Shown here: in pieces, positions 860 through 48,124 of the stretch
Position numbering within the stretch: the stretch's first letter is position 1
Layout: every line of letters starts with the position of its first letter
NCBI GenBank assembly: GCA_022984795.1
Contig: JALIHJ010000058.1
Location: forward strand, 1 to 64,000
Reading direction: 5' to 3'
Source: Fabrea salina
Lineage: Eukaryota > Ciliophora > Heterotrichea > Heterotrichida > Fabreidae
DNA: 64,000 nt
Translations under genes and position numbers: made by a program
Notes under the pieces: generated by a model
Told to the model about the DNA's origin: nothing
The model's input: only the letters and a program-made list of their open reading frames with translations
Database searches by the model: none

Positions 860-871
860 TGCAACTAATAA
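860..871. promoter_or_regulatory. 12-bp spacer between divergent starts (acpS / coiled-coil gene)
   Basis: Twelve bases, TGCAACTAATAA, separate the ATG at 859 (minus) from the ATG at 872 (plus). Any core promoter for either gene must reach into the other coding region. Confidence 0.6.
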
Positions 872-2269
872 ATGCAGGACTTAGAAGAACTAAGGTCTTC
901 CCGCAAAAACTTTAAACCTGAGGTTTTTTCTAAGGAATCGAAGGCAATTTCTTCAGCAATGAAAGCCCTCCAAGAAAGAATAAAGACTTTAGAAAGCAAG
1001 AATGCATTGTTGGTCCAAGAACTAGAATCCAAGAAAACCCAGGAAATCAACCTAGAGTCCTTGAAAACCAAAGAGGAACAACTAGAATACTACGAAAGCA
1101 GCGCCAAGCACTACTACTGGAGAAGCAAAGAACTCCAGGAAAGCAACCAACAACTATTTACTAAGGTCCAGGAATTGCAGAACCAAATCAATAAACTGCA
1201 GAGGACTAACGAGTCCTCGCAAAAAGAAAAAGAAAACTTGCAGAAGGACATTGAACAACAAGAACAACACTACAAGTCCCAAATTGCAGAGTTGAAGGAC
1301 AATGTCCAAAAAGCCCAGGCCAGTGAAGCCAAAGTCAGTCAAGAACTTAAAGCAATCCGAGAACAAGTTTCTGCTACCAACGATAAGCTACTTGAAGCCA
1401 ACACCCACATTGAGTACCTAGGTTCCCAAATCAATGAAACCGAAGAGTACTACGAGAACCAAATAAGCGAATACCAAAGAAAGCTAGAGTCCTACCAAAG
1501 CCAAATTCAGGACTCTAGTAAAAAAACAGAGCAAAAACTGCTGGACTTGCAGAGCCAAAGTACTGACCACAAAAAACTAGTTTACGAAAAAGACCAAAAA
1601 CTAAGCCAACTAGAAAAAGAAGTGAACACCCTCAGAAACGCCAACAAGATACTGGAAGAAGCTAATCTTACTCTTAAGCGCCAGTATGAACAATCCCAAG
1701 CTTTTGCAAAGGACGTTGTTAGTGTCAACGAACAACTGGTAAAGACTTTCAAAAAGGAAGAGAAACTCCAAACTTCGCAAGTTAAAAAAAAACCCAAAAC
1801 TACCAAAGCCAGTCGCACCAAAACCTTCAAATTCGGACAAGACCCTGAAGTTGAAGAGTACACTTCAATTGAAAACCTAGAAAAAGAAATAGTGGACTTG
1901 AACAACCATTACAAAGAACTTCTGAATTCTGGGCCTGAGAAGTTCAGCAGTATTTCAGCACTGAGGAACCAACTGAACTTGATTGCAAGTGAAATGGAAA
2001 CCAAGAGTGCAGAGCTCCACAGCTTGAAAAGACAAAGGCAAAATAGGTTAAGAAGCAAAATTATGAGTTTTAGTTACACTGATTTTGAGTTTGGGCAAAG
2101 AAGAAGAAACTGCCATTTTCTTGGGAACCGACCTTTTGAACCTGGGGTTGTAGACCCAGTCTTTTTGAGGCGAAATGGAAGAGTTTGTGTTCCTTTTGGT
2201 TTTTCTGTGAGGAGTTTGCACCATAGAGAACCTGGACTTCTTGGACTGGAAGTTACTTTTGTGGCCTAG
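872..2269 (+). CDS. Long coiled-coil protein, 3' end uncertain
   Basis: Residues 1-390 are almost continuous coiled coil rich in Glu, Lys, Gln and Leu, with a Lys/Thr basic patch near residue 310; a structural, perhaps cytoskeletal or basal-body role is inference. The open frame runs to 2269 but its last 70 residues lie antisense to the next gene and look like non-coding shadow. The real end is probably near 2046-2066, where the convergent neighbour also ends: a TAG at 2044-2046 would be reached in another frame. A 17-nt GT-AG candidate intron at 1989-2005 would give that frame, but it removes plausible coil sequence. A one-base read error is the alternative. Confidence 0.75.
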   Translation: MQDLEELRSSRKNFKPEVFSKESKAISSAMKALQERIKTLESKNALLVQELESKKTQEINLESLKTKEEQLEYYESSAKHYYWRSKELQESNQQLFTKVQELQNQINKLQRTNESSQKEKENLQKDIEQQEQHYKSQIAELKDNVQKAQASEAKVSQELKAIREQVSATNDKLLEANTHIEYLGSQINETEEYYENQISEYQRKLESYQSQIQDSSKKTEQKLLDLQSQSTDHKKLVYEKDQKLSQLEKEVNTLRNANKILEEANLTLKRQYEQSQAFAKDVVSVNEQLVKTFKKEEKLQTSQVKKKPKTTKASRTKTFKFGQDPEVEEYTSIENLEKEIVDLNNHYKELLNSGPEKFSSISALRNQLNLIASEMETKSAELHSLKRQRQNRLRSKIMSFSYTDFEFGQRRRNCHFLGNRPFEPGVVDPVFLRRNGRVCVPFGFSVRSLHHREPGLLGLEVTFVA

Positions 2270-3487
2270 TTCTTGGAGAGCCTTGGGGTCCATCAGTTGT
2301 TTTAAGTCATAGGGAATCATTGGTCTCAGCACTGCAAAGGCTTCACTTGATATTAGTCGGGACTTTTGGGGGCCAAACAACTCCTGGACTCCTGTTTCTT
2401 GTTTGAGGTGTTTGTAGTGGGAGTCCATAAAAGAGGACACCTTTTTCGAGAACTCTGACTTCTTTCTGCATTTCCGAAAGCGACTTAAGTTTTCTAGGAG
2501 TTCTTGTTTGTTTTCTGGGTTCATGAGAGGGACTCTTTTGAACATTAGTTCCTTTTCGCTGTGCTCAAGAGTGATTTTCCTCACAGAAATTCTAGAAGCG
2601 TAAGTAAACCAGATTTTGGAGTTGTCGTCTTGCATGAACTCAGCCCGCATTCTCAGTACTTCTTTTTGCGAAAAAGTGGCCAAGTTGTAAACGATGCGTC
2701 TGCACATGAGTAAACAGTACTGGTGGGGGTCTTGAGAAGCCAAGGCCTCTTCTTCTTCAGACTGGACTTGCCCGGCGTGTTGGAGGGCGTGGAGTGATTC
2801 CTGGTCGTTGGCTTCGTGAGAGTAGTAAGTAACTGTGAAGGTTTCTCCGATTCCGCCCTGGCACTTAACGCAGGTTTGAAAGTAGGTGAAGCTCTTCCAC
2901 ACAAAACTGCTGGGTCTTTCGTACATCAAGTTGACGAAATCGTAGTCGAACATTACCCTCAAGGCCCCTTCTTCTTCGTGAGGCAGAACTTTGGAGGAGT
3001 TGTTGTCTTTTTCTTTGGCCATGTAGCGGAGCAGCACTGTTTCTTTTCCGTACTTAGCGTCCTCAGACTTGTCGTTGTTGCCTTCTTTTTTCCTTATTTT
3101 GACAATGTTTATTATGCTTTTTCTGAGCTCGGAGTTTTTGAGTTTCTGAGGGGAGTTAACGTATTTCAGGAAGTTGTCTTTGTTTTGGCAAATCATGAAG
3201 CTGGGTTTTCCTTTTCTGTAAACTACAGTTTCTGGGACGTTGAGTTTTATAGAGTTTTGCAAACTGGCTTCACCTAACTGTTTCAAAACCCAAGTGAAGC
3301 TTTTTTGTTTTCCCTGGTAATTAGCAAAGTCTTCTTTTTTTTGTTCAAGAGAAACTTTAGGGACTTTGTTTTTCGACTGCATGTTGCAAAGTGAACAGCC
3401 GCACGAAAAAAAGGGAGAAACTGGCTGTATATTGGGTCTATTGGAGAGTGGGTTTTCAGACTTCTTTAGGGTGTTTAGTTCTTCCAT
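2048..3487 (-). CDS. Conserved-looking protein of unknown function (479 aa)
   Basis: Not recognised. The N-terminus has a CGCSLCNMQ cysteine cluster near residue 29. A central globular part (about 170-320) contains a CVKC pair, an LMCRRIVYNL segment and a WFTYASRISVRK segment. The C-terminal third is basic and Ser/Lys rich, probably disordered. It converges with the coiled-coil gene at 872 and their 3' ends touch or overlap. Codon usage matches its neighbours, which supports it over the antisense reading. Confidence 0.75.
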   Translation of the reverse strand: MEELNTLKKSENPLSNRPNIQPVSPFFSCGCSLCNMQSKNKVPKVSLEQKKEDFANYQGKQKSFTWVLKQLGEASLQNSIKLNVPETVVYRKGKPSFMICQNKDNFLKYVNSPQKLKNSELRKSIINIVKIRKKEGNNDKSEDAKYGKETVLLRYMAKEKDNNSSKVLPHEEEGALRVMFDYDFVNLMYERPSSFVWKSFTYFQTCVKCQGGIGETFTVTYYSHEANDQESLHALQHAGQVQSEEEEALASQDPHQYCLLMCRRIVYNLATFSQKEVLRMRAEFMQDDNSKIWFTYASRISVRKITLEHSEKELMFKRVPLMNPENKQELLENLSRFRKCRKKSEFSKKVSSFMDSHYKHLKQETGVQELFGPQKSRLISSEAFAVLRPMIPYDLKQLMDPKALQELGHKSNFQSKKSRFSMVQTPHRKTKRNTNSSISPQKDWVYNPRFKRSVPKKMAVSSSLPKLKISVTKTHNFAS

Positions 3488-3502
3488 TTACGGACTTGTA
3501 TT

Positions 3503-4249: not shown

Positions 4250-4259
4250 TCTGTATAAT
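4250..4259. promoter_or_regulatory. 10-bp AT-rich spacer between divergent starts
   Basis: TCTGTATAAT lies between the start codons of the F-box gene (4249, minus) and the PSMD5-like gene (4260, plus). It carries a TATAAT-like core in the plus direction. Confidence 0.45.
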
Positions 4260-5579
4260 ATGCAGGAGTACTTGCAAAACCAAACACAGTCTAGTGCCTT
4301 GGAGTTGCTTGACACTTTTCCCGTGTCTGAAGTTCTTTCAGTGTGCAGAACCGAAAGTTTTGGAGTTGAGTTGTTTGAGTGGGTTCTGAGGTACCAGGAC
4401 TGTTATGCCAGAGTGATCAGCCAAATTGGAACTCCAGGAGTAGTTGAGCTTCTAAACTCCCAAAAGTTAAAAGTGCCCACTCTAAGCATTTTAAAAACTC
4501 ACCAAGTTTCAGGTCTGGACCGCTCTGAATTAATTTCTGCCCTAATCAACCTTTTGAGTTCCGCCGACTCAACTCCAGGAAACTTAGCTAAAGACCTTCT
4601 TGTTAGTAGTTTCCAAGAAGATGTGCCAAACTACTCTTTGCAGTTAAAGGACCTTTTTGAAAGAAACGACAGCATAGTTCAGCTAAGAATTGTTGACTTG
4701 GTGGTAGCTATGAGTAGCAACCCCCAACACTTCCAAGCCTTTGAACAAGTGAGTCTGATTGAAAGGGCAATAGACTTGTTTACGAGCGAAGACATCCTTA
4801 CTAGACTAACTGCAATTGAAGTAGTTGCTGAACTAGGAAACACTCCCCACGGAGCCTCGAAACTTACACAGCAAAGAGTGAAGCAGTTGATTAGTTCCTG
4901 TCTGGACAGCAACATAGAAGACGTGCACTCCAAGTCAAGACTTTTCTTGTTAGCTTCTAAGATCTTCCACTTTACAGGCAACACTCACTTCATAGACGAA
5001 CAGTTCTGGCAGACTCTGCACCAGTTTTTGGAGTCTCAAGAACCCTCTTTAGTTAACAGTGGAGTAACAGCTGTTTGTTTTATTGGTTCACAAACTCCAG
5101 GTCCGGACTTAATAGCTGAAAAGCAAGGGATCGTGAAATCCTTAGCTAAACTCCAAGTCAGCGCAAACGACGAGTACAAAATAGGCTTTTACAAGAGTCT
5201 TGAAGTGGTGTGCCACCATGCTTCAGAAAACACCGTTAGGGGACTGGTGAATTCTTTTAGGTGGTTTGACCCAGTTTTGAAGCAGATCAAAGCTCCTTTT
5301 TCAGAGTTGATGGAGACAATACTAAGGTTTGTTCTGTGCTTGATGAAGTTTGAGTGGAGTGCAGGAGTGATGTTTAACGAACCTAGTTTTGCTGAGTTTA
5401 TGCTGAAAAGAACCAAAACGCAAACCCAAGAAATTTCTTACTTGAAGCATCAAATCAACAGAAAAGCTCTAGACTACAACTTCGACCAAGTGCTTCTAAG
5501 CAAACTGAGAGAGTACGTCCAGACAGGACCCTTTGCACCTAGTGAAGGCTTTGTAGAAGAAGCGGTTACTCAAACTTAA
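4260..5579 (+). CDS. PSMD5: PSMD5/S5B-like 26S proteasome assembly chaperone
   Basis: 439 residues from the ATG at 4260. The open frame extends up to 4161, but that part lies antisense to the F-box gene, so the later start is preferred. All-helical ARM/HEAT-like repeats are visible throughout. The segment DILTRLTAIEVVAELGNTPH near residue 180 matches the PSMD5 pattern, and a later SLVNSGVTAVCFIGS block matches its following repeat. PSMD5 helps assemble the proteasome base (RPT ring) and can inhibit 26S formation. Its TAA (5577-5579) directly abuts the stop of the convergent anoctamin gene. Confidence 0.75.
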   Translation: MQEYLQNQTQSSALELLDTFPVSEVLSVCRTESFGVELFEWVLRYQDCYARVISQIGTPGVVELLNSQKLKVPTLSILKTHQVSGLDRSELISALINLLSSADSTPGNLAKDLLVSSFQEDVPNYSLQLKDLFERNDSIVQLRIVDLVVAMSSNPQHFQAFEQVSLIERAIDLFTSEDILTRLTAIEVVAELGNTPHGASKLTQQRVKQLISSCLDSNIEDVHSKSRLFLLASKIFHFTGNTHFIDEQFWQTLHQFLESQEPSLVNSGVTAVCFIGSQTPGPDLIAEKQGIVKSLAKLQVSANDEYKIGFYKSLEVVCHHASENTVRGLVNSFRWFDPVLKQIKAPFSELMETILRFVLCLMKFEWSAGVMFNEPSFAEFMLKRTKTQTQEISYLKHQINRKALDYNFDQVLLSKLREYVQTGPFAPSEGFVEEAVTQT

Positions 5580-7643: not shown

Positions 7644-7650
7644 TTATACT

Positions 7651-10311: not shown

Positions 10312-10410
10312 TTATTATTCGCGTCTCCGAAAGCTGCCCAAGTAAATATGACCAGGACTGATTAGTGACGACTCGTAACGAAAAATCTGACTAACTGAGC
10401 TAATTATAAA
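10312..10410. promoter_or_regulatory. Divergent intergenic region, LRR gene / MAP kinase
   Basis: 99 bp, long for this chromosome. It ends with GAGCTAATTATAAA just before the kinase ATG. No other motif was recognised. Confidence 0.4.
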
Positions 10411-14723: not shown

Positions 14724-14732
14724 TATTTAACT

Positions 14733-24572: not shown

Positions 24573-24583
24573 TTATAACACTT
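24573..24583. promoter_or_regulatory. 11-bp spacer between divergent starts (FUN14-like / BBS7)
   Basis: TTATAACACTT separates the two start codons; it includes TATAA. Confidence 0.45.
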
Positions 24584-26633
24584 ATGGAGTTATCAAGACT
24601 GGACTATACCCAAGTGAATGGAGCTAACAAAGGGATTCTGACTTTTCTGCCCCGCTCAGAAAGAGAGCCTCTAGTTGTAGGCGACTCCAACGGGATTTTA
24701 TCTGCTTTTCAGCTCCAAGAAAACTCTGTTTCAACTTTATGGTCACATGCACTCAGACCAATTACTAAACTTGAGCTCTACGCAAACAGTTCCAGCACTG
24801 AAAAGGTGCCTGCTTTATATGTGTCTACAGGGAGTTACATTCAGGGCTTTTCCCAAACTGGAAGGCAAACTTCTAACTTTGACACAAACATTGCAGAAAC
24901 TATTAGTTGTTTTAAAGTCGAAGAAAACCACCTCTGGACTGCAGGCAAATACATTTATAACCACTTCGTAAGTGAAAAGGACACAGACTTTATGGTGCTA
25001 GAAGACATTATCCACGACATAGAGATTCTCAAAGTAGTAGGTGACCTTAAACCCAACGCTGTACTGGCTTGCCAAGACAAAACAATTAGGGTTCTTGAAA
25101 ATGCTGAAGTTTACTACTCCCAGTCCTTGCACTCAGCCCCAGTGTGCTTTTCAAAGTATGCCCAAAAGGCAAATGACTTCCAAAACAACAGGTACTTGCT
25201 TTACGGATGCTCAGAAGGAACGGTAGGGCTGCTCCACATGGAAAGAGAAGCACCTAGAGCTCTTTGGGCACTTGAGGGTTCTGGTGAAGTTACGGGTTTG
25301 TGTGTGTACGACATAACAGGGAACGGAGTTAACGACATAATAACTGCTAGAAAGTCTGGAGCTTTAGAAATCAAAAGCTTAGACGGAGACTCTGGAGAAC
25401 TGACAGACACCTTCAGTATACAGCTTTCAGAAGGGATTACCTCTGTTGTGGCAGGCAAACCTAGAGGCAAGCCTGAAGTGGTGGTTTCAACTTTCTCTGG
25501 AAAAGTCATTGGCTTGGGTGACTCTTCAGTGCCCAAAGTGCACGAAAGCCAGGTGCTTGAAGGAGAGATCCACTCTTTAAAAGACAAACTAGAACAAGTC
25601 AAACAAGAAAAACCCCTTTCTAAAGTTCCAGGTCCCTGAAGTTTCTCATCAATTAAGCTTAGTAGCCCAAGAAGCTGCTTACAGTTTGCTTATAGAAAGT
25701 CAGTTTCCCATTGAAGTGATGTCAGTGGTTTCTGAGGTCCCAATTGAAGTAGTAGAAACTCAAGACCACCCTGCTAAAGTCAACATGATTAAAAAAGACA
25801 CTCAAGTGCTCGCAACTTACTGCATGCCAGACAACTCCTACACCAGGGCAGAAATCAAGTTTACTACTACTGAAGGACAAAGCGGCAACCTGCAAGTTTA
25901 CGTGTTATCTGCACTTGAACCCAAAAGAGCACAACAAGTCACAGTAGAAATAAGTTCTTTGTCCCTCCACGAAAAGGTTTCAGAGATTCCAGAGAGTTCT
26001 TGTCCCCTAAACACTCTAACAGTCACAGGCAAGTTTTCCAAAAACGAAATGCACGGCTGGATCAGCAGAACTCTGCCCAGCGTTCCTCCTCATGCAAACG
26101 AGTCCTGTGTAAGGATGTACTACACTTCCTGTGTAATAGGCTCAGTGCTGATAATTTCCTACTCAAACAATCACGCAGAGTTTAGGTCAGACTCAGTTTC
26201 AACAATAACTATTTTGAAAGAAAGCATTTCACAAAAGGCCAGCTACAGAAAAGTCCACCTAGATATGAGGTTCCAAGAAGACCCCTCTTCACACCAACAC
26301 ATTCTAGAACTTGTGGACCAGCAGATCTCTGAACTGAACAACTTGGAAAGTCAGTACTACATTTTAGACGCTTTAAAAGAAATAGAAATCCAGGGCGACC
26401 TAGAAAAAGTAGACGGAAGCATGAAAGGCATCCTTGAAAACTCAGAAAAAATCAGAAATGACTACACAAAAAGTTCCAAAAAACTTGAATTCTTGCAAGG
26501 CTACATCACTGACTTGTACGTGGACAAAGCTCGATCCCAAGGAATTCAAAACGTAGCAGACAAGATTCCAACTCTGCAGCACATCTTGGCAAACTACGAC
26601 TTTAACTCTCTTTTAAGCTTTTTTTATGCTTAG
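24584..26633 (+). CDS. BBS7: BBS7, BBSome subunit (frame change near 25595-25635)
   Basis: BBS7 is a core subunit of the BBSome, the coat that carries membrane proteins in and out of cilia. Residues 1-320 form the beta-propeller (LDYTQVNGANKGILTFLP, VLACQDKTIRVL). A short coil (SLKDKLEQVKQ) follows, then the appendage domain, and the conserved C-terminus LQGYITDLYVDKA ... NSLLSFF fits BBS7 rather than BBS2. The first frame stops at TGA 25637; the rest (YSLLIESQFPIEV onward) is in the +1 frame, open from 25593. No 15-, 16- or 19-nt GT-AG intron fits the overlap, so a one-base read error or a true frameshift is likely. Total about 680 residues, close to the family length. The TAG overlaps the convergent MDH stop by four bases. 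Confidence 0.9.
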
Positions 26634-32437: not shown

Positions 32438-32440
32438 ATA
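32438..32440. promoter_or_regulatory. 3-bp spacer between divergent start codons
   Basis: CAT-ATA-ATG: the minus-strand start codon, three bases, then the CTU2 start codon. CTU2's N-terminal zinc motif begins four residues in, so its start is fixed here. Confidence 0.55.
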
Positions 32441-33391
32441 ATGGAAAAGTGTTATAAGTGCAAAAAGGAAAACGCCCAGTACTTAGTTAGGAGCAACAAA
32501 GTCTGTAGGAACTGCTTTGTCTACAACACTGAGCATTTGTTCCGGTCTTCCTTGAAGAACCAATTGTTCCCTAAAAGAGGCGAAAAGGTACTGGCATGTG
32601 TGTCTGGCGGTGCCAATTCAATGGTTATGCTGGAACTCGTGGACACTTGCAGGAACTCCCAGAAAACCAAGAAACTCATGCAGTTTGTTCCGGATGTTCT
32701 GTACATTGACGACAGCATTGTGTACAACACACCCGCACAACAAACACAAGACTGGCTCAACAAAGTCCGTGAAAGGTACCAAGTTGAGTGCCACCTAGTT
32801 AAACTAGAAGAAGAAGTTCCTGACATCCTAGAAACTCTGCCTTCAGACCCCCAGGCTAAGTCAGACTTACTCTACATAAAACTCCACAACATCATTGAGA
32901 AGTTTGCATTTGAACACAACTACTTGAAAGTAATAACTGGCGAGTCAGCTAGCAGAATATCAGTACTCACAATGACTCAAATCTGCAAAGGAAGAGGAGT
33001 TGCAGCTAACAAGCACTCAGCTTCGCCTTACTCTACAGACAAAGTAATCATAGCTAAGCCTCTCAAAGAGTTCCTTGACAAAGAAATCAGACTCTATCAA
33101 CATGTAACTCAGCCTGACTTGCTTACTAAGTTGCCTTTGGCCCACTCTTCAAGTAAGTTCATGTCAGGAAGCATAGACATGCTAATTGAAAACTTTTTGC
33201 ACTGCCTGCAAGACAAGTTCCCCTCTACCACACACACTCTTTTAAGGACCTCTGGCAAACTAAGGCCCCTAGAAACCCAAGACAGGTGCGAGTTGTGCCA
33301 AGAAAGCCTAGACAGACCCACAAACGTACTTGAAGAGTTCAAAGTAATGAACCACAGACTGTGCTACGCATGTCATCACTTAACTAATTAA
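32441..33391 (+). CDS. CTU2: Cytoplasmic tRNA 2-thiolation protein 2 (CTU2/NCS2)
   Basis: 316 residues from the ATG at 32441; the frame upstream to 32327 is antisense to the neighbour. CTU2 pairs with CTU1 to thiolate the wobble uridine of certain tRNAs. The N-terminal zinc motif CYKCKKENAQYLV and CRNCF is intact. The PP-loop-like segment is ACVSGGANSM, and the C-terminal CELCQES and CYACHH cysteines are present. The middle contains RISVLTMTQICKGRG as in the family. It is shorter than the human protein but complete at both ends. The stop shares TTAA with the convergent gene. Confidence 0.9.
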   Translation: MEKCYKCKKENAQYLVRSNKVCRNCFVYNTEHLFRSSLKNQLFPKRGEKVLACVSGGANSMVMLELVDTCRNSQKTKKLMQFVPDVLYIDDSIVYNTPAQQTQDWLNKVRERYQVECHLVKLEEEVPDILETLPSDPQAKSDLLYIKLHNIIEKFAFEHNYLKVITGESASRISVLTMTQICKGRGVAANKHSASPYSTDKVIIAKPLKEFLDKEIRLYQHVTQPDLLTKLPLAHSSSKFMSGSIDMLIENFLHCLQDKFPSTTHTLLRTSGKLRPLETQDRCELCQESLDRPTNVLEEFKVMNHRLCYACHHLTN

Positions 33392-35534: not shown

Positions 35535-35546
35535 TATTATTAAGTG

Positions 35547-37202: not shown

Positions 37203-37359
37203 TTATTCAACAACCAATAAGATGACCTGAAGGTGCAATGTTTTTAAACTATTTTCAGAAGAAGGAATATGTTAATATAAGTTTGATCATTCACAAGTTA
37301 ATATAGACTATGAATCACCTTTGGAGTAGACAGTTGTTAGAAATTCCCTTTATATTATC
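37203..37359. promoter_or_regulatory. 157-bp intergenic region upstream of the DOMON-like gene
   Basis: AT-rich sequence between two minus-strand genes, long for this chromosome. It would hold the promoter of the DOMON-like gene and the 3' end of the giant gene's neighbour region. No specific motif was recognised. Confidence 0.35.
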
Positions 37360-40300
37360 TTAATTAGGACTCTGGACTTGGTTGGTCTTGACAAAAAGTG
37401 AGTTGTCTTGTAGGCTAGGGTCTACTTGATTCTCAAAAGTGCTCTGGAACTGGGTTTCAACTACTTCTGAAACTACTCGAGTCTTCTGGCACTTCTTTTT
37501 GATGAACTTGACTATGCTTTGGAGTGCACCCACAGCAACAAACAGAGTTCGCAGTCCAATAAGTGCGTAAACTACGTAGATCACTGCTTCCTCTGCTTTG
37601 TGCTTCCCTCTCAGGTCACTCAGAAAGTACATCACAACTAGGTAGACCACAAAAACCCCTGTTTCTACGATCACAGAGACTAGTTGCTGGAGTTTGTCTT
37701 TGTAGGGTCTCACTACTAACAGAAACACAGCAAACACAGCCATCAGAACAGTGTTGATGGTGGCTTGTGTGTAGGGAAAGTTTGTCAGTAGAATGAGACT
37801 GACTCCTAACACCAGTCTTATGAGAGTGAACAAAGCATAGGTGTAACTAGCTTCGAATCTCTCTGTGCAGTCGAATTCATAGAAGAGTGACTTGTAGCGT
37901 TTGTAGGTCTCTGATTCCTCTGAATCCTGTTGTGATTCCTTGATTGTAGTTTGGTTCTTTCTGCAGAAGGCTACGATTGCACCTGGAGTGACTGCTAGAA
38001 ATACCCCCACTACAACTGCTGGAATAAAGTTGTTGGTCAGTTCTCTTGCTATTGAGTCTACTGAGTAGAGCTGAATGAAGCAAGAGATAACCAAGTCCAA
38101 GTAAGTTTGAATCCAAAACCGAATAAGGACTCCGTACTTGTACTTGGCCAGCAGTTTTTCACAGACTCCTTTGATCTTGGGTATTTTAGAGAGCAGCAAG
38201 ATCACAGGCCACAGAGCTAGTAGAAACATGAGTACAGTCAAGTCTTTTCCTGCGTTCTCCAGAAACAAGTAAGACTCATACCCGTAGTCTTTGGAGTAGT
38301 AGTTAGGGTTAGGCCTGCTTTCAAAGTTAAACAAGTCAAAAACATTGGGAATCATGCTTTTCATTGTATTGAGCCCCTTCAAGAATCCCTTGGTTTTAGG
38401 AGTGAGTGGGTTGGTAGTCAGAGGAATATAGGTCAGTATCTGGATAGTGTTCATAGTAGCCCACAGTCCTGAAGGATTGGGATTGAACACAGCTGAAATT
38501 CCAGATATTGCTGTAGCTGCAGAGGCTGTAGTTTTAGCTTGGCTTTCAGCTTGTTTGGCTTCTTCGGCTGAAGGATCATACTCGTAGAGTTGTACTTGCA
38601 GTATTTTGTCTTCCAGAATAGAGTTGGTTTCACTAACTACTCCAGAAGCATTAGTAAACTCTAAGCAGGCCAGTTCTCCTTCAGACACGAAAGATTGGAA
38701 ACTGAGATCAAACTTGTAGTCATCCCTCTTTGAGTAGCTGAACTCAATTGACTTGTTTTGCAGGTAGATGTTGTAGTCAGTTGGTGTTAGTTGGGAAGTA
38801 GGAGTTTCAGAGAAAGTTAGAGTCAGAGTGTTGTCTTCTGCTACAGTTAAGTTGGCGTAGAATAGTTGTCTTTCGCAGAACCCGCTTTTGGAGAAGTAGC
38901 CTTGGTTGCACTCACAGGTGTTGCTTGAGTTAAATGATGCGTTTTCTATGCACTTTGTGCATTCTTTTCCACTTAAACAAGTTGCACATAAGTCCATGCA
39001 TTCTAAACACTCAGTTCCTTCTAAGTATGTTCCCTCAGGACAAGGTCCACAGGTTCCGTCTTCGTGTAGGTAAGAATCTTCGCATGAAAGGCAGTCTGTG
39101 GATTCTGGACCTGAACAAGTTTTGCAGGAGTAGTGGCACTGATTGCATTCAGGAACAGTTTGGTCTAAAAAGTAACCTTCTTGACATACACACTCTTGAT
39201 TTGAAAAGCTTGAGTGTAGTGGACACACGCAGTCTCCAGAAGAATCCCTAACTGAGTTTTTTACTTGGCAGTCTACACAGTCTAGGTCCAAAGGAGAGCA
39301 TTGAGAGCATTCTAAAGAGCATGGCTGGCAGTTTATTCCGTTAGAGTCTCTATTGAAGTAGCCATCTACACAGTAACACTTGTTGCTAATCACTTCTCTT
39401 CCCATAGAAGACTCGCACTCAATACATTCTAGGTCAAGTCTGTCTAGTCCATAGCCTGGGTCGCATACACAAGGGTTTCCAGAGGCGTTGGCTTTGCACT
39501 CACTACAGTCTCCTTCTTCGAAGCTACTGCAGTTTATGCACATAGAGTCTTCACACAAGTTGCAAGTGTGTTGTCTCAAGCATCCACTTGTACACTCAGA
39601 GTCACATTCCACACACTCACTTCCATTCCAGAATTCAGTGATCAGGCAGCTGGGTAAGCACTGCTCCTGGTTGTCTATAGGACAGAAACTGCATAAGTCA
39701 CAGCTAGAAGACTCCAATAGAGTAGTAGGATCTTTGTTTGAGTTGTAAATTCTTACTTCCCAGATAAACCCAGTGTAAAAGTTGGTAAGTGTGCTTTGGT
39801 CTGAATGTTCAGCTCCAATTGAGAAAAAGTAAGAGTCTTCCAAGTCCACCAACCACTCATTCCCTAAACTGCTAGAAATCACTTGAGTATTGTTTAGGTA
39901 AGCAGAGACTCTGAACTCAGGTACTGATGAGTCTAAGTCCACTCCAACTGCCACAAAGTTCCAGCCTTCTTCTACTGAGTCAGTTGAGGAGTGGGAACTT
40001 GATGTTACGTCTAGGTGTACTTGGGGTTGTTTGAAGTTGAGTGATACTTTGAACTTGGTGTCTACTCCTGAAGAGTCTCTTTGTTTGTTCAGAAGAGTTC
40101 CAGAGTTAGCAGTAGGTCTTATCCATATTGTCACTGTGAACTCAGGAGCTAATGCAAGACTTGGGCTTGCAGCTAGTTGCATGTAGGAAGTGCCTGTGAA
40201 GTAGTAGCCTCTGTCCTTGGCAGGAATGGGGTCAGTGGAGTCTGGAGTGGGGTAGAAACTGTTGTCGTCTCCTGTGAGCACTGGAATGGAGGACTGAGTG

Positions 40301-43300
40301 TCAGTGACAGTGTCTTGAATGGCATGAGGCTGTAAGTGGAACACAAAGTCATCTGAAGTTGTACATGCTCCTGAGTTGGAGGAGTAGCCTGTGGGACAGA
40401 AAGGATAACACACTCCTTGAGTCAGTAAGTAACCAGAGCTGCAGTCAGTGCAATCGTGGAACTTAGATGAAGTGCAAGCATCGCAGTTAACTGTGCATGC
40501 TAAGCAGGTCCCCGAAGTAGCGTCCCAGAGATAACCTGACAAGCATTCACAGTCAGAAAGATTGTTATCAGTATTAGCTTTGCAAGTTGAACAAGAAACG
40601 TAGTCAGGACATTCTAAGCACTGTTCGTCACTACAAAGATTGCAGGTTTTGTCTGCTCTAACACAGCCCTTAGTTGCGCAGTTAGAATCACAAGAAGAGC
40701 AACCAGATCCATCCCAAAACTTATCAATTCCGCAGTTGGGCAAGCACTTAGGAGCTATGTCTACTGGGCATAAAGTGCATTCTGAGTCACAACTACTGCT
40801 CACTAAAGCAGAAGTAGATTTAGAGTTGTAGATCTTCAAGTCCCACAGGAACCCTTGGTAGTGGTCAGTAAGAGTAGTGGAGTCTGACTGGTGCACTCCA
40901 ATCTTAAAGGAGTCAGAAGTAACTGAGTCTTTGTACCAGTCCTGTGCTAGTGCAGAGCTAGTGTCTACTGCTGAGTTGGATTTAATCTGAATCTTGAAGT
41001 CACTTGAATCGATGTAGAAGTAAAAGGCTAGGAAGTTCCAGTTTCCAGAGTTAAGGTTAGTTCCTGAGAAGTCCACTTCAGAAGAAGTCAGTTTGATCTG
41101 GGCTTTAGGAGTGTAGGAGTCAATAGACAGTCTCAGAAGGTTAGTGCTGGGAGACTCTATTCTCGAAAGCATAGTTCCTTTGGCTGCTGAAGGCTTGATC
41201 CACATAGCTACAGTTAACTCAACTGAAAGCTTCAGTTCACCTGTTTCAGACCCGTAAGGAGGAATTTGCATGTAAGAGGTGCTAGTGAAGTAGTAACCTC
41301 TATCCTTAGCAGCGTAGGGGTCTGTGGAGTCGTAGTTGGGATAAAAGTTGTTGTCTTTTCCAGTGAGTACCACAAGTGAACTTTGGGAGTCAGTCACAGT
41401 GTCACTGATCTTTGAAGGGTTGATGTAGAAAACAAAGTCGTCTGAAGCTGAACTTGATGTTTCGGAGCAAGTGTACTTAGTAGGGCAGTAGCTTAAGCAT
41501 ATCCCCGAGACTAGGTTGTAGCCTGAGTTACACTCTGTGCAGCTGTTGAAGTTTGAGTCAGAACAGGTTTTGCAGTTAGAAGCACAAGCCTTACACTCGT
41601 CTGCGTCTTGGAAGTAGCCGTCTTTGCAAATGCAGGTTCCACTTGAGTCAATCACTGGGTCAGGTTTGCATGTAGTACACCCAGTTCCGAAAGTACTGCA
41701 TTCACTACAGAGTTGGTCCTCGCATAAGTTGCAGTCAGTTCCCCTCACACAACCATTTCCACAAGTGTCACAGTTTTGGCATCCAGAGTCGTAGTACTTA
41801 CCAATTTCACAAGTGCTTATTCCACTGCTAGGAGGAACCTGGGGAGTTGAGCCAGTGTAGTCAGTTCCTGCTTTGCCTGCAACATTGTACACCTTAAGAC
41901 TCCACAAGAACGCTTCAAAAGAACTAGAAGAGTGTTTGCCTATCCAAAACTCATCTGAGACAGCTATTGAGTCTTTTAAGTAACCTGGAGTAGTTGTTAG
42001 GGTGCTTACGTCAGTTGAGTCAGTTCTAACTGTGACTTTGGTGTTTCCGCCACTAAGAATTTCTCCAGTGACTGCAAAGTAAGTCCAGGAGTTGTGAGTT
42101 ATAGTAGACCCAGTAGTTGTAATAGCTTCTGATGTAGTTGTCACTGAAGCTGAAAGTTGGGAACTTGTAAACTCTAGTTTGAAAGTATGGGAACTAGATT
42201 CTTCTTTGCGGAGCATTTCGCCTGAGTTGGAGTGGAGTTTCAACCAACCAAGAACAGTAAACTGGGGAGCTAGCACTAGTGAGGTTTTGGCAACTGCATT
42301 TGAGTGGAAGTAATAACCTCTGTCCTTAGCAGGCCATGGGTCGTCAGAGTCTAAGGTAGGGTAAAAGTTGGCTGTGCTTCCGTAGTCCAATCCTTCCAGT
42401 GTTCCATCTATCTTGTCATAGAACTCCACTCCTAAAGCTAGTTCACTTGTAGAGTCGCACTCGTTGTTGGTAGAATCAGTAGTCATTCCTGTAGGGCAGT
42501 AGTCTAAACACATGCTGGTGTAAATCAAGAAATGTCCATTGTAGCACTCTGTGCAGCTGTTGAAGTTTGAGTCAGAACAGGTTTTGCAGTTAGAAGCACA
42601 AGCCTTACACTCGTCTGCGTCTTGGAAGTAGCCGTCTTTGCAAATGCAGGTTCCACTTGAGTCAATTACTGGGTCAGGTTTGCATGCAGTACACCCAGTT
42701 CCGAAAGTACTGCATTCACTACAGAGTTGGTCCTCGCATAAGTTGCAGTCAGTTCCCCTCACACAACCATTTCCACAAGTGTCACAGTTTTGGCATCCAG
42801 AGTCGTAGTACTTACCAATTTCACAAGTGCTTATTCCACTGCTAGGAGGAACCTGGGGAGTTGAGCCAGTGTAGTCAGTTCCTGCTTTGCCTGCAACATT
42901 GTACACCTTAAGACTCCACAAGAACGCTTCAAAAGAACTAGAAGAGTGTTTGCCTATCCAAAACTCATCTGAGACAGCTATTGAGTCTTTTAAGTAACCT
43001 GGAGTAGTTGTTAGGGTGCTTACGTCAGTTGAGTCAGTTCTAACTGTGACTTTGGTGTTTCCGCCACTAAGAATTTCTCCAGTGACTGCAAAGTAAGTCC
43101 AGGAGTTGTGAGTTATAGTAGACCCAGTAGTTGTAATAGCTTCTGATGTAGTTGTCACTGAAGCTGAAAGTTGGGAACTTGTAAACTCTAGTTTGAAAGT
43201 ATGGAAACTAGAGTCTTCTTTGCGGAGCATTTCGCCTGAGTTGGAGTGGAGTTTCAACCAACCAAGAACAGTAAACTGGGGAGCTAGCACTAGTGAGGTT

Positions 43301-45594
43301 TTGGCAACTGCATTTGAGTGGAAGTAATAACCTCTGTCCTTAGCAGGCCATGGGTCGTCAGAGTCTAAGGTAGGGTAAAAGTTGGCTGTGCTTCCGTAGT
43401 CCAATCCTTCCAGTGTTCCATCTATCTTGTCATAGAACTCCACTCCTAAAGCTAGTTCACTTGTAGAGTCGCACTCGTTGTTGGTAGAATCAGTAGTCAT
43501 TTCTGTAGGGCAGTAGTCTAAACACATGCTGGTGTAAATCAAAAAGTACCCGTTTTCGCAGGAGCTGCATTCGTGGTAGTCAGTTCCGTAACAAGCATCA
43601 CAGCCTGTACTGCAAGTAATGCAACTAGTTCCAGTGTGGTATTGACCGCTTGGACATTTGCAGTCATTAACTAGAGGTAAGGAACCTGCACACAGAGTGC
43701 ACTGATTATCAGCAAAACCATCACACTCAATGCAGTTTACTAAACCACAGAGTACACAGTCAGTTCCTCTTACACAGCCCTCACTGCAAGTTCCGTCACA
43801 AGCCACACAGTTCCCAGAGTCATCTTCATACTGGTTGTAGTCACACTCCCAGAAGTCGTTTGAACAGTTAGAGCCTCCGCAAAACTCATACTCAGCACTA
43901 AAGTCACTTTTCGCAGTCTGCCATATCTTGATCCGGTAAATGAACCCAGAAGAGTCGTGTCCTCCTATTTGAATCCTGTTGCCTGTGGAGTGTCTGAAGA
44001 TGTAGTTTGCAGTTGAGGCAGTGCTATCTTGAGTGTTGTCCTTGTAAGTAGTTAACTTGGTTTGGTAGCTGGAAGTGAACTCACACACAAAAGCCAAGAA
44101 CACCCAGTTTGAAGTAGCAGAGACTGAGACTGAAGCTGAAGTAGTAGTTGGTGTGATGTCTTCCAGAGTGAGTGTCATGCCTGAGTCACTGATTTCAAGA
44201 AAGCTTGACTCAGCTAGAATCTTGCCAGAAGTAGACACTTTGACCCAGAAAGCAATACTGAAGTCGTGGTAGAACTCAAAGGAGTTAGTGGAAGTCATGT
44301 ACCTACTAGAGGTGAAGTAGACTCCTCTGTTCTTCATAGGCAGCACATCTGAAGCATCCCCAGTCTGAAATGGGTGGCTTGTTGAAGAGTCACTTCCACT
44401 GTAGAAGTTAGTGAAGTCTTTGGGGAACCTTGTGAAGTCTTCTTCTAAGACTGCAGTAGTGGGTAATGTTCCAGGACAACTACCAAACCCACTTGGACAG
44501 GCATTCAAGCACACTCCTCCTACTGTAAGCACAGACCCAGACACACATGAACCAGACTTGCAGATCCAGTTGAACTCATCGCAGTTAGAGCACTTGTAAT
44601 CGCACAAAAAGCAATCTGGTTCTTGAGTGATAGAATTGCAGCCAGAGGAAGAAGAAATAACTTCCTCATTGCAAATAATTCGATTATTCTCTTTATAACA
44701 CCAAGGCCAGTCATCATTGCACAGAGAACACTCCTTGCAAGAACCGTCATTGTCCACGTAGTAGTTGAATTCACAGGTTGGCAAGTTAAAAAATCCTGTA
44801 ATATGAGGATGGTTACCTGGATTAGCAGAGTATATTCTATAAACAAACCCAGTGAATCCATTTCCGATGTACCACTTTAAAGTACTTATATCAGCTCTGC
44901 TCACCGCCCAATAGTCGTATTCCATAAATGAAGCCTCTTCTTGTCCATAGTTTCTATTTCCTAAAAGACTCATTCGGCTGTCACTATTGCTTAATCCACA
45001 CCCAAAATAAATCCTGCCCCATGAACCTACACTTTGACTCACGCTGATTTGCTTGTCTACATAATCAGAATTGGATGTGTCGAGTGCTTTAATGGTAAAC
45101 TTCCAATCAGCTCCATCAAACTCTAGAGTAAGGTGGGACTCTGAGTTGTCTCTGGCTTGTACTAAGATGCCTGCAGCTTTAGGTCTTACAAAAGCTACTA
45201 ACTTGTACTGGACATAGTAAGTATAAGGTTCATTGGACACTAAAGAAGAAGTGGACTTGAAGTAGAATCCCCTTTCTTGGGTTGGAATAGGGTTGTTTTG
45301 GGAGTCTCTGAATGCACTTCCGTCAGGTGTACTAAAAGTGTCCACAGAATTGGCTGAGTAGTCAGTTATGTCTTTGAATTTTAGGTCAAAAACTATTCTT
45401 ACACCATCATTTGGGTCACAATTCCCATTTGGATTGGTGCTAAAGCCAGTAGGACAATGGTTATAACAAAACCTCCAGAATTTGTAGTAACTTGGATCAC
45501 AAGCAACACAAGTATACCCATTAACATTAGCACAATTAGGAAGCCCAGAAACTATTCCTAAAAAAACTAAAAGCACAGCACAAGCACCTTTCAT
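37360..45594 (-). CDS. Giant surface protein: LamG-like and furin-like Cys-rich repeats with multi-TM C-terminus
   Basis: 2744 residues. A signal peptide (MKGACAVLLVFLGIVSG) is followed by alternating modules. About six are concanavalin/LamG-like sandwiches (recurrent KDRGYYF and ELTVAMWIKP-type strands); between them lie furin/growth-factor-receptor-like cysteine runs (CVRGTDCNLC, CKTCSDSNFNSC). Cys-rich repeats dominate about 2030-2270, then a beta domain to about 2370. The last 350 residues hold roughly eight TM helices (VLIRFWIQTYLDLVISCFIQ) and a short cytosolic tail. Two modules are nearly identical copies. Ciliate proteins of this plan are thought to be large cell-surface receptors or adhesins; function unproven. 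A relic of a relative lies at 57950-58600. Confidence 0.85.
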   Translation of the reverse strand: MKGACAVLLVFLGIVSGLPNCANVNGYTCVACDPSYYKFWRFCYNHCPTGFSTNPNGNCDPNDGVRIVFDLKFKDITDYSANSVDTFSTPDGSAFRDSQNNPIPTQERGFYFKSTSSLVSNEPYTYYVQYKLVAFVRPKAAGILVQARDNSESHLTLEFDGADWKFTIKALDTSNSDYVDKQISVSQSVGSWGRIYFGCGLSNSDSRMSLLGNRNYGQEEASFMEYDYWAVSRADISTLKWYIGNGFTGFVYRIYSANPGNHPHITGFFNLPTCEFNYYVDNDGSCKECSLCNDDWPWCYKENNRIICNEEVISSSSGCNSITQEPDCFLCDYKCSNCDEFNWICKSGSCVSGSVLTVGGVCLNACPSGFGSCPGTLPTTAVLEEDFTRFPKDFTNFYSGSDSSTSHPFQTGDASDVLPMKNRGVYFTSSRYMTSTNSFEFYHDFSIAFWVKVSTSGKILAESSFLEISDSGMTLTLEDITPTTTSASVSVSATSNWVFLAFVCEFTSSYQTKLTTYKDNTQDSTASTANYIFRHSTGNRIQIGGHDSSGFIYRIKIWQTAKSDFSAEYEFCGGSNCSNDFWECDYNQYEDDSGNCVACDGTCSEGCVRGTDCVLCGLVNCIECDGFADNQCTLCAGSLPLVNDCKCPSGQYHTGTSCITCSTGCDACYGTDYHECSSCENGYFLIYTSMCLDYCPTEMTTDSTNNECDSTSELALGVEFYDKIDGTLEGLDYGSTANFYPTLDSDDPWPAKDRGYYFHSNAVAKTSLVLAPQFTVLGWLKLHSNSGEMLRKEDSSFHTFKLEFTSSQLSASVTTTSEAITTTGSTITHNSWTYFAVTGEILSGGNTKVTVRTDSTDVSTLTTTPGYLKDSIAVSDEFWIGKHSSSSFEAFLWSLKVYNVAGKAGTDYTGSTPQVPPSSGISTCEIGKYYDSGCQNCDTCGNGCVRGTDCNLCEDQLCSECSTFGTGCTACKPDPVIDSSGTCICKDGYFQDADECKACASNCKTCSDSNFNSCTECYNGHFLIYTSMCLDYCPTGMTTDSTNNECDSTSELALGVEFYDKIDGTLEGLDYGSTANFYPTLDSDDPWPAKDRGYYFHSNAVAKTSLVLAPQFTVLGWLKLHSNSGEMLRKEESSSHTFKLEFTSSQLSASVTTTSEAITTTGSTITHNSWTYFAVTGEILSGGNTKVTVRTDSTDVSTLTTTPGYLKDSIAVSDEFWIGKHSSSSFEAFLWSLKVYNVAGKAGTDYTGSTPQVPPSSGISTCEIGKYYDSGCQNCDTCGNGCVRGTDCNLCEDQLCSECSTFGTGCTTCKPDPVIDSSGTCICKDGYFQDADECKACASNCKTCSDSNFNSCTECNSGYNLVSGICLSYCPTKYTCSETSSSASDDFVFYINPSKISDTVTDSQSSLVVLTGKDNNFYPNYDSTDPYAAKDRGYYFTSTSYMQIPPYGSETGELKLSVELTVAMWIKPSAAKGTMLSRIESPSTNLLRLSIDSYTPKAQIKLTSSEVDFSGTNLNSGNWNFLAFYFYIDSSDFKIQIKSNSAVDTSSALAQDWYKDSVTSDSFKIGVHQSDSTTLTDHYQGFLWDLKIYNSKSTSALVSSSCDSECTLCPVDIAPKCLPNCGIDKFWDGSGCSSCDSNCATKGCVRADKTCNLCSDEQCLECPDYVSCSTCKANTDNNLSDCECLSGYLWDATSGTCLACTVNCDACTSSKFHDCTDCSSGYLLTQGVCYPFCPTGYSSNSGACTTSDDFVFHLQPHAIQDTVTDTQSSIPVLTGDDNSFYPTPDSTDPIPAKDRGYYFTGTSYMQLAASPSLALAPEFTVTIWIRPTANSGTLLNKQRDSSGVDTKFKVSLNFKQPQVHLDVTSSSHSSTDSVEEGWNFVAVGVDLDSSVPEFRVSAYLNNTQVISSSLGNEWLVDLEDSYFFSIGAEHSDQSTLTNFYTGFIWEVRIYNSNKDPTTLLESSSCDLCSFCPIDNQEQCLPSCLITEFWNGSECVECDSECTSGCLRQHTCNLCEDSMCINCSSFEEGDCSECKANASGNPCVCDPGYGLDRLDLECIECESSMGREVISNKCYCVDGYFNRDSNGINCQPCSLECSQCSPLDLDCVDCQVKNSVRDSSGDCVCPLHSSFSNQECVCQEGYFLDQTVPECNQCHYSCKTCSGPESTDCLSCEDSYLHEDGTCGPCPEGTYLEGTECLECMDLCATCLSGKECTKCIENASFNSSNTCECNQGYFSKSGFCERQLFYANLTVAEDNTLTLTFSETPTSQLTPTDYNIYLQNKSIEFSYSKRDDYKFDLSFQSFVSEGELACLEFTNASGVVSETNSILEDKILQVQLYEYDPSAEEAKQAESQAKTTASAATAISGISAVFNPNPSGLWATMNTIQILTYIPLTTNPLTPKTKGFLKGLNTMKSMIPNVFDLFNFESRPNPNYYSKDYGYESYLFLENAGKDLTVLMFLLALWPVILLLSKIPKIKGVCEKLLAKYKYGVLIRFWIQTYLDLVISCFIQLYSVDSIARELTNNFIPAVVVGVFLAVTPGAIVAFCRKNQTTIKESQQDSEESETYKRYKSLFYEFDCTERFEASYTYALFTLIRLVLGVSLILLTNFPYTQATINTVLMAVFAVFLLVVRPYKDKLQQLVSVIVETGVFVVYLVVMYFLSDLRGKHKAEEAVIYVVYALIGLRTLFVAVGALQSIVKFIKKKCQKTRVVSEVVETQFQSTFENQVDPSLQDNSLFVKTNQVQSPN
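41531..43546 (-). repeat. Near-identical tandem duplication, period 1014 bp, inside the giant gene
   Basis: Copy A (about 41531-42532) and copy B (about 42545-43546) match base for base apart from a handful of substitutions over 1 kb. Examples are near 42491/43505 (C/T) and a few around 42190/43204. The period of 1014 is 338 codons, so the frame is kept and one full Cys-rich plus LamG-like module is doubled. The outer ends diverge sharply at the GHFLIY/GYFLIY junctions. Confidence 0.92.
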
Positions 45595-45662
45595 ATTTAT
45601 AATTCATTCACCAGTTTATTCTAATTTAAATTGCCCCAAGCTACACAAAACTCTGAATAATA

Positions 45663-47458: not shown

Positions 47459-47459
47459 C

Positions 47460-48119
47460 TTAACTAAAGTTTTCATCTTCTTCGTCTGGAAGAGGTGCGT
47501 TCTGTAGGTTTTGCATTTCTTGGTGCTCTCTTTGAATAGCTTCCATCTGCTCGTTGTCAATCTCAACTTCTTCAGCTGCAAGCACCGGAGCTTCCACAAA
47601 CACCAAGTTGGGGTCCCCTGACAAGCGCTTTGCCAGCCACAAAAAAGGCTTTTCGAACTGGTAGTTGCTTTTAGCAGACACATCGAAGTACTGCAAGTTG
47701 TGTCTTCTGTGGTAAGTGATTTGTTTAGCTTTAACTTTTCTGTCTTTGATGTCCACTTTGTTTCCCACAAGCACAATAGGAATGTTTTCGCAGACTCTTA
47801 CGAGGTCGCGGTGCCACTTGGGAACGTTTTTGTAAGTAACGCGGGAAGTAACGTCGAACATGATTATGCCGCACTGGCCTCCAATATAGTAGCCGTCCCT
47901 GAGTCCGGAGAGTTTTTCTTGTCCAGCAGTGTCCCACACGTTAAAGCAAAGAGGGCCTCTAGAGGTAAAGAAAGTTAAAGGGTGCACTTCTACACCTACA
48001 GTGGCAATGTACTTCTTTTCGTATTCTCCAGTAAGGTGTCTTTTCACAAAAGTAGTTTTGCCAACTCCTCCGTCGCCAATCAGGACTAACTTAAACTCTA
48101 CTCTAGTTTGCCCTTCCAT
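47460..48119 (-). CDS. RAN: Ran GTPase
   Basis: 219 residues, the family length. It has the P-loop [10 protein letters not shown], switch [22 protein letters not shown], the specificity motif NKVDIKD and [16 protein letters not shown], all diagnostic of Ran. The acidic C-terminus DEEDENFS replaces the usual DEDDDL. Ran drives nuclear import and export and spindle assembly; in ciliates it serves both nuclei. It is divergent from the NUDIX gene with only five bases between starts. Confidence 0.97.
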
Positions 48120-48124
48120 TTATT
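48120..48124. promoter_or_regulatory. 5-bp spacer between divergent starts (Ran / NUDIX)
   Basis: TTATT only. Both starts look fixed: Ran's by the conserved N-terminus, the NUDIX gene's because the next ATG falls within the domain. Confidence 0.5.

What the first reader, a model, noticed from the sequence alone, without database searches (positions are those of the whole stretch)
860..48124. Divergent genes with 3-12 bp between start codons
At least six gene pairs have start codons separated by only 3 (32438-32440), 5 (48120-48124), 10 (4250-4259), 11 (24573-24583), 12 (860-871) or 14 bp (55322-55335). Conserved N-terminal motifs (CTU2 zinc finger, Ran) fix several starts. Both 5' UTRs and promoters must sit inside the opposite coding region or be nearly absent, which raises how transcription is initiated in both directions.
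Basis: seen in the sequence. Interest (0 to 1): 0.7.

Follow-up and report, generated by a model that had tools for sequence, protein, structure and literature searches.

The report
Tiny TATAA spacers between divergent genes
In this extremely compact genome, very probably that of a salt-lake ciliate, neighbouring genes can point away from each other with only a few letters between their start codons, and those letters are often TATAA, which hints that one tiny shared signal may start both genes.

Summary
All six gaps exist at the stated coordinates. Five pairs are well supported; the sixth (55322-55335) rests on a weak 67-aa ORF. Ran/NUDT5-like is firmest: both N-termini align to solved homologues (from residues 2 and 4), five bp apart. 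The genome (18.33 Mb, 103 contigs, 15-nt introns) is probably the heterotrich ciliate Fabrea salina (inferred; the assembly is unnamed). Short gaps are not special to divergent pairs: in 334 kb, median gaps are 35 bp divergent, 19 tandem, 8 convergent. The content is non-random. TATAA (either strand) is in 17 of 30 divergent spacers up to 60 bp (null 6.8; 0 of 1000 simulations reached 17), but at background in convergent and tandem spacers; it is near 21 of 35 homology-anchored starts (null 9.1; 0 of 1000). Genome-wide, CAT-TTATA-ATG occurs 86 times, against 13-17 for three similar spacers, though repeats and single starts contribute. Where spacers are 40 bp or more, 19 of 24 TATAA lie 5-14 bp before the ATG. 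I favour initiation at or beside this element, with near-leaderless mRNAs, over promoters inside the partner's coding region. Three of the six window spacers, Ran/NUDT5 included, lack TATAA. Transcription start sites were not mapped.

The parts
860..871 (.). 12-bp divergent spacer TGCAACTAATAA between ACPS (494-859 -) and a coiled-coil ORF (872 +); no TATAA
494..859 (-). 4'-phosphopantetheinyl transferase (ACPS), 121 aa; homology from residue 1
   Evidence: PF01648 E 6.8e-13, 5vbx_A E 4.1e-11
872..2269 (+). coiled-coil ORF; its 3' part overlaps the convergent ORF 2048-3487, so its end is uncertain
4250..4259 (.). 10-bp divergent spacer TCTGTATAAT, contains TATAA
3503..4249 (-). F-box protein, 248 aa
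   Evidence: PF12937 E 1.7e-6; next Met 210
4260..5579 (+). proteasome PSMD5-like (Proteasom_PSMB) protein, 439 aa
   Evidence: PF10508 E 8.3e-27; next Met 151
24573..24583 (.). 11-bp divergent spacer TTATAACACTT, contains TTATAA
24159..24572 (-). FUN14-family protein, 137 aa
   Evidence: PF04930 E 6.7e-11; next Met 13
24584..25639 (+). BBS7 beta-propeller protein, 351 aa; homology from residue 2
   Evidence: PF23743 E 2.9e-63, 6vbu_7 E 1.4e-44
32438..32440 (.). 3-bp divergent spacer ATA; with the flanking start-codon bases it reads CATATAATG, which contains TATAA
31289..32437 (-). coiled-coil protein, 382 aa; further Met at 10, 12 and 45
32441..33391 (+). CTU2 (tRNA 2-thiolation), 316 aa; weak homology from residue 3
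   Evidence: PF10288 E 1.6e-10 (residues 244-301), 6scy_B E 0.0019 (residues 3-69); next Met 61
48120..48124 (.). 5-bp divergent spacer TTATT, both flanking starts fixed by homology; no TATAA
47460..48119 (-). Ran GTPase, 219 aa; homology begins at residue 2
   Evidence: PDB Ran E 1.5e-105
48125..48652 (+). NUDT5-like ADP-sugar pyrophosphatase (NUDIX), 175 aa; homology begins at residue 4
   Evidence: E 1.5e-24
55322..55335 (.). 14-bp spacer, weakly supported pair (67-aa ORF 55118-55321 -; 162-aa ORF 55336-55824 +); no TATAA

Best explanation
The window is macronuclear DNA of a streamlined heterotrich ciliate, very likely Fabrea salina. Genes are packed to within a few base pairs in all orientations. 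Shown here: the gaps, the 15-nt introns, and a TATAA element (either strand) that is enriched in divergent spacers and tends to lie 5-14 bp before the ATG. Inferred: TATAA acts as a compact, orientation-tolerant initiator-type core promoter. Pol II starts at or within a few nt of it, in each direction, giving 5' leaders of about 0-15 nt. In many of the shortest divergent spacers one element would serve both genes; in longer spacers a gene often has its own copy beside its own ATG. It would work like the AT-rich, partly symmetrical initiator of Giardia, not like a metazoan TATA box 25-30 bp upstream of the start site.
For: Both starts of the 5-bp Ran/NUDT5 pair are fixed, so both 5' ends lie within 5 bp or in the partner's coding region. 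In divergent spacers up to 60 bp, TATAA (either strand) is in 17 of 30 (Markov null 6.8, max 13 of 1000 runs); convergent 3 of 27 (null 3.8), tandem 16 of 80 (null 15.1). Of 35 homology-anchored starts (38 fetched, 3 dropped), 21 have TATAA/TTATA within 40 bp (shuffle mean 9.1, max 17 of 1000). Genome-wide CAT-TTATA-ATG occurs 86 times (reversed control 13) against 17, 13 and 17 (controls 10, 12, 21) for the other three T...A-ended A/T spacers of that length, out of 312 CAT-W5-ATG places (control 118); CATTTATAAATG is 26 (control 4) of 209 CAT-W6-ATG places (control 50). In 69 genes with gaps of at least 40 bp, 19 of 24 TATAA lie at -5 to -14 (20 of 24 in the nearer 20 bp, p=0.0008). One canonical TBP gene. 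Nearest upstream AG is further than at random positions (median 13.5 vs 7 nt), against trans-splicing near the ATG. Partner 5' coding sequence is not AT-rich. Giardia gives precedent for leaders down to 1 nt and for some bidirectional initiation at one nucleotide (PMC3792122, passages).
Against: No transcript data. TATAA is not universal: 3 of the 6 window spacers lack it, and so do 5 of 12 divergent gaps under 15 bp in 334 kb (looser gene filter, start-codon bases counted), Ran/NUDT5 (TTATT) among them. The full palindrome TTATAA is only weakly enriched (5 of 30, null 2.0, reached in 40 of 1000). Tandem spacers are not enriched above their own composition. At -5 exactly the divergent-tandem difference is modest (12 of 88 vs 4 of 100, p=0.033) and fades for gaps of at least 5 bp (p=0.064). 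The clustering near ATG weakens with longer spacers (12 of 17 at 50 bp or more, p=0.07; 11 of 16 at 60 or more, p=0.10), and the last 10 bp are also the most AT-rich. The 86 places are not 86 pairs: at least 11 lie within about 2.4 kb of a contig end, and the two of those sampled are repeats with broken frames; of four other places inspected, two are divergent pairs and two are single starts preceded by CAT. A canonical TBP normally positions Pol II further downstream than this geometry allows. In Giardia bidirectional firing was not related to symmetry of the consensus (PMC3792122).
Confidence: 0.6

Rival explanations
1. Promoters and transcription start sites lie inside the opposite gene's coding region, so the two mRNAs overlap head to head and the spacer TATAA is a TATA box or AT-rich leader.
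For: Follows from canonical TATA-to-start spacing. In Halteria the TATA-like motif lies on average 17 bp before the TSS, with the ATG about 18 bp further on (PMC7858049, passages). In the 84 genes with gaps under 20 bp (32 divergent, 52 tandem), position -20 is AT-rich (0.78). Five of 12 divergent gaps under 15 bp have no TATAA.
Against: The first 60 nt of genes with a close divergent partner are not AT-enriched: GC3 0.478 (n=34) vs 0.417 (n=130), p=0.016 in the opposite direction. The best antisense k-mer there is p=0.0003, uncorrected over all 6-mers. The position profile is weak beyond -15, at most 0.14 bits. TATAA sits mostly at -5 to -14 when spacers are at least 40 bp.
Confidence: 0.2
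2. TATAA next to ATG is a translation-initiation context (A-rich, Kozak-like) or a by-product of AT-rich spacers, and says nothing about transcription.
For: A is strongly preferred at -1 to -3 in all genes. ATAA is the commonest 4-mer before ATG in both divergent and tandem genes (16 each). The last 10 bp before ATG are the most AT-rich.
Against: Order-specific: TTATA 86 vs 17, 13 and 17 for the other A/T spacers with the same end letters. The distance to ATG varies (-5 to -14 and beyond), unlike a fixed context. Stronger in divergent than in tandem or convergent spacers.
Confidence: 0.12
3. Start codons are misassigned, or short upstream exons behind 15-nt introns widen the gaps.
For: 15-nt introns exist (22 modelled in 334 kb), and one divergent gene (start at C1:33227, minus strand) needs one 32 nt after its ATG. 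Four of the twelve members named could start at a later Met.
Against: Ran, NUDT5, ACPS and BBS7 homology starts at residues 2, 4, 1 and 2. For F-box and PSMD5-like the next Met lies beyond or inside the domain. Intron-like motifs around starts are at chance (4 vs 3.9). At C1:33225 the intron lies downstream of the start, and recognising it shortens the gap to 5 bp.
Confidence: 0.05
4. mRNAs receive a spliced leader by trans-splicing, so genomic leaders can be absent.
For: Would explain tight packing in principle.
Against: AG acceptors are scarce before starts: nearest AG median 13.5 vs 7 nt at random C1 positions, within 10 nt 36% vs 61% (AT-rich spacers explain part of this). The 3-bp and 5-bp spacers contain no AG on either strand. 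A spliced-leader RNA gene was not searched for.
Confidence: 0.03

Closest known systems
Fabrea salina macronuclear genome (Zhang et al. 2022, Mol Biol Evol msac062; title seen in reference lists; paper not held; abstract recalled only)
   Same: Genome size (18.33 Mb here vs 18.35 Mb recalled), streamlining, tiny introns (recalled)
   Different: Whether that paper describes the divergent gaps or a TATAA element could not be checked
Giardia lamblia AT-rich initiator with very short leaders (PMC3792122, passages read)
   Same: AT-rich, partly symmetrical element that can abut ATG (its commonest listed variant is ATTTTAAAATG); leaders can be 1 nt; some bidirectional initiation at one nucleotide between adjacent genes
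   Different: Element here is TATAA rather than TTTTAAAA-like; unrelated lineage; TBP here is canonical, whereas Giardia TBP is divergent (PMC12209930, abstract start in a search listing); initiation sites not mapped here; the Giardia authors found bidirectional firing unrelated to symmetry
Halteria grandinella TATA-box-like motif (PMC7858049, passages read)
   Same: Ciliate, extremely short UTRs, TATA-like motif near the gene start
   Different: There the motif is on average about 35 bp before ATG (17 + 18, my sum), one gene per nanochromosome; here it is mostly 5-14 bp before ATG and sometimes shared between divergent genes
Blepharisma stoltei somatic genome (PMC9942806, passages read)
   Same: Heterotrich, gene-dense, short intergenic and untranslated regions, 15-16-nt introns
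   Different: Alternative code (UGA=Trp); the word promoter does not occur in its main text

Membership tests
Heterotrich ciliate macronuclear genome (Fabrea) | Introns almost all 15 nt (stated for heterotrichs in PMC11441545, passage) | tested here: met
Heterotrich ciliate macronuclear genome (Fabrea) | Standard stops in use (recalled for Fabrea) | tested here: met
   Predicted genes with score over 20 end in TAA 182, TAG 28, TGA 17
Heterotrich ciliate macronuclear genome (Fabrea) | Genome size about 18.35 Mb (recalled) | tested here: met
   18,328,466 bases in 103 contigs
Heterotrich ciliate macronuclear genome (Fabrea) | 18S rRNA identity | not tested
   No eukaryote reference collection on hand
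Giardia-type AT-rich initiator | AT-rich near-symmetrical element within 40 nt of ATG | tested here: met
   TATAA in either strand, the full TTATAA palindrome only weakly enriched
Giardia-type AT-rich initiator | Element coincides with the TSS and can fire both ways | not testable with these tools
   No transcript data
Canonical TATA-box promoter | TBP with conserved DNA-binding saddle | tested here: met
   One TBP gene (two repeats in one 232-aa frame); ungapped alignment to TBP chain 1tgh_A over 177 aa, E 1.4e-83; the four intercalating Phe (recalled) are conserved in it
Canonical TATA-box promoter | TATA about 25-30 bp upstream of TSS, hence further from ATG | tested here: not met
   19 of 24 TATAA at -5 to -14 of ATG where the gap is at least 40 bp; indirect, TSS unmapped
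Spliced-leader trans-splicing | AG acceptor just before ATG | tested here: not met
   AG scarcer than at random positions; SL RNA gene not searched for
Halteria TATA-like motif | Motif about 17 bp before TSS and about 35 bp before ATG | tested here: not met
   (distance to ATG only; TSS unmapped)

The most novel reading that the evidence does not exclude
A functional bidirectional RNA polymerase II promoter can be as short as 3-11 bp: one TATAA element, flanked directly by two start codons, launches two leaderless or near-leaderless mRNAs in opposite directions from a canonical TBP, and this is a standing promoter class in a free-living eukaryote.
Probability: 0.3. Interest if true: 0.8.

Novelty: new variant of a known kind. 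Interest (0 to 1): 0.5.

Why it matters
If confirmed, it would give a free-living eukaryote with canonical TBP in which core promoter, leader and intergenic space collapse into about 5-10 bp. That makes it possible to test how small a eukaryotic promoter can be, how TBP-TFIIB geometry adapts, and how ribosomes start on near-leaderless capped mRNAs. It also says which cap-mapping result would decide between shared initiators and overlapping promoters.

Tried and rejected
Ciliate code (table 6): rejected; the standard code gives the tight, mostly non-overlapping gene set. 16-nt introns: incoherent by eye, dropped; longer introns were not sought. Rfam and tRNA scans of the window: nothing. Promoter k-mers in partner coding sequence: none convincing. 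The GC3 test came out opposite to the promoter-in-partner prediction. Spliced-leader and upstream-exon ideas: not supported. A first reading that the 86 genome-wide CAT-TTATA-ATG places are 86 gene pairs was rejected after sampling. Gene-finder limits: overlaps over 5 bp are not modelled, so 872-2269 was dropped; starts are likelihood choices. If first-ATG starts are used instead, 7 of 49 divergent pairs overlap. Anchored set: 38 of the 171 matches were fetched (20 Ras, 12 E2, 6 proteasome), 3 dropped (two without an ATG, one uncertain), and 8 of 35 starts were chosen by hand among several in-frame Met.
Full report
WHAT IS THERE. The window is the start of contig C57 of an unnamed assembly of 18,328,466 bases in 103 contigs. 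ORFs are long in the standard code. In its final form (15-nt introns only, overlaps of at most 5 bp) it gives 225 kept genes, 90% coding sequence and 22 introns. When 15 and 16 nt were both allowed, the 15-nt introns shared a consensus near GTAAGTNCTACTTAG and the 16-nt ones did not. Introns of 15 nt, with a few of 16, are stated for heterotrichs in PMC11441545 (passage) and 15-16 nt for Blepharisma in PMC9942806 (passage). Size, code and introns fit the streamlined macronuclear genome of Fabrea salina. Its title is seen in reference lists; the paper is not held, and its 18.35 Mb figure is recalled. The species is inference.

ARE THE STARTS RIGHT? The 5-bp pair is the firmest. Ran aligns to solved Ran chains from residue 2, and the NUDIX protein aligns to NUDT5 from residue 4. 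ACPS aligns to a solved synthase from residue 1, BBS7 to solved BBS7 from residue 2, and CTU2, weakly, from residue 3 to a solved tRNA thiolase (E 0.0019). For F-box and PSMD5-like, the next in-frame Met falls beyond or inside the domain. FUN14 could start at Met13 (gap 47 bp); the coiled-coil partners could start at Met10 or later (gap 30 bp or more) and Met30 (gap 99 bp). The sixth pair is weak. Upstream exons: 15-nt intron-like motifs around 190 starts number 4, against 3.9 expected.

IS IT SPECIAL? Not by orientation. Among kept neighbours the median gap is 35 bp for 44 divergent pairs, 19 bp for 102 tandem pairs and 8 bp for 47 convergent pairs, of which 11 overlap by exactly 4 bp. Divergent gaps are longest (p=0.012 vs tandem, 3e-5 vs convergent). 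So the finding is one face of general compaction. Homology-anchored starts elsewhere in the genome show the same: of 171 Ras/Rab, ubiquitin-conjugating and proteasome matches, 38 were fetched and 35 were usable; divergent gaps run from 9 to 298 bp (19 genes), tandem from 2 to 241 bp (16 genes).

WHAT IS IN THE SPACERS. In divergent spacers up to 60 bp, TATAA (either strand) occurs in 17 of 30; a Markov null gives 6.8, never above 13 in 1000 runs. Convergent spacers have 3 of 27 (null 3.8), tandem 16 of 80 (null 15.1). The full palindrome TTATAA is in 5 of 30 divergent spacers (null 2.0, reached in 40 of 1000). Independently of the gene finder's start choice, 21 of 35 anchored starts have TATAA/TTATA within 40 bp, against 9.1 in shuffles, max 17 of 1000. 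In the window itself 3 of the 6 spacers contain TATAA, counting start-codon letters. Genome-wide, CAT-TTATA-ATG is found 86 times (reversed-pattern control 13). The three other A/T spacers of that length with T at one end and A at the other are found 17, 13 and 17 times (controls 10, 12, 21). All CAT-W5-ATG together are 312 (control 118). The palindrome CATTTATAAATG is found 26 times (control 4) among 209 CAT-W6-ATG places (control 50).

CAVEATS ON THE COUNT. At least 11 of the 86 lie within about 2.4 kb of a contig end (a lower bound; many contig lengths are not known to me). The two sampled (C51, C26) are 90% identical repeats with broken frames, not gene pairs. In the contiguous 334 kb there are two such places, and both are divergent pairs, one after recognising a 15-nt intron just inside the left gene. 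Two further places looked at (C34, C7) are single starts preceded by CAT. So the order-specific enrichment is solid, but the number of true 5-bp pairs is not known.

HOW IT MOST LIKELY WORKS. In 69 genes with gaps of at least 40 bp, where crowding does not force the position, 19 of 24 same-strand TATAA still lie 5-14 bp before the ATG. The tendency weakens at 50 bp (12 of 17 in the nearer half, p=0.07) and 60 bp (11 of 16, p=0.10), and the last 10 bp are also the most AT-rich. A TATA box acting 25-30 bp upstream of the TSS would put the start inside the ORF, so the element is better read as an initiator. The variable spacing argues against a pure translation context. The partner's first 60 nt are not AT-rich (GC3 0.478 vs 0.417), and the position profile of genes with gaps under 20 bp is weak beyond -15 although position -20 is AT-rich; this disfavours, without excluding, promoters inside the partner. 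AG is scarce before starts, which disfavours trans-splicing. The genome has one canonical TBP gene, itself with TTATAAA just before its ATG. Shown: gaps, starts, motif enrichment and position, TBP. Inferred: initiation at TATAA in both directions, near-leaderless mRNAs.

COMPARISON. Giardia is the nearest working parallel. [quoted passage not shown] In Halteria the motif is further upstream (PMC7858049, passages). The listings and passages I saw show no report of a TATAA element in heterotrich divergent spacers (searches; only 79 named heterotrichs with TATA box). The key Fabrea paper and the Stentor genome paper were not read, so novelty is not established.

VERDICT. The spacer content is a new and testable lead. 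TATAA is absent from 5 of 12 divergent gaps under 15 bp, among them Ran/NUDT5, so it cannot be the whole story.

Noticed in passing
window 11451-11454, 26630-26633, 33388-33391; 11 of 47 convergent pairs in 334 kb: Convergent genes often overlap by exactly 4 bp, so the two stop codons share letters; 3' UTRs must then lie in the partner's coding region or be absent. The gene finder allowed overlaps of 1-5 bp only.
   Followed up: partly
G000 contig ends, e.g. C51:1824, C52:2031, C26:351512 (L068, L069): A repeat about 2 kb from contig ends, 90% identical between the two copies sampled and with broken frames, carries CATTTATAATG; the 11 end-near places point the same way relative to the end (minus at starts, plus at ends). 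Possibly subtelomeric.
   Followed up: partly
window 2048-2269: ORF 872-2269 (+) overlaps ORF 2048-3487 (-) by 222 bp; the true end of the plus-strand gene is unclear.
   Followed up: no
window 60107-60121 and 35454-35468: Two predicted 15-nt introns: the first joins ORFs 59393-60067 and 60107-63931 (gene model runs to 64156, past the window), the second extends ORF 34155-35240.
   Followed up: partly
window 37360-45594: A 2744-aa Cys-rich protein with long, nearly identical internal repeats and hydrophobic stretches near its C-terminus (seen by eye).
   Followed up: no
gene starts in 334 kb: Genes without a close divergent partner have lower GC3 in the first 60 nt (0.417) than gene bodies (0.464); those with one do not (0.478).
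   Followed up: partly
tandem spacers in 334 kb: AATAA is enriched in tandem spacers up to 60 bp (27 of 80, null 17.2, reached in 2 of 1000 runs), perhaps from tandem stops.
   Followed up: no
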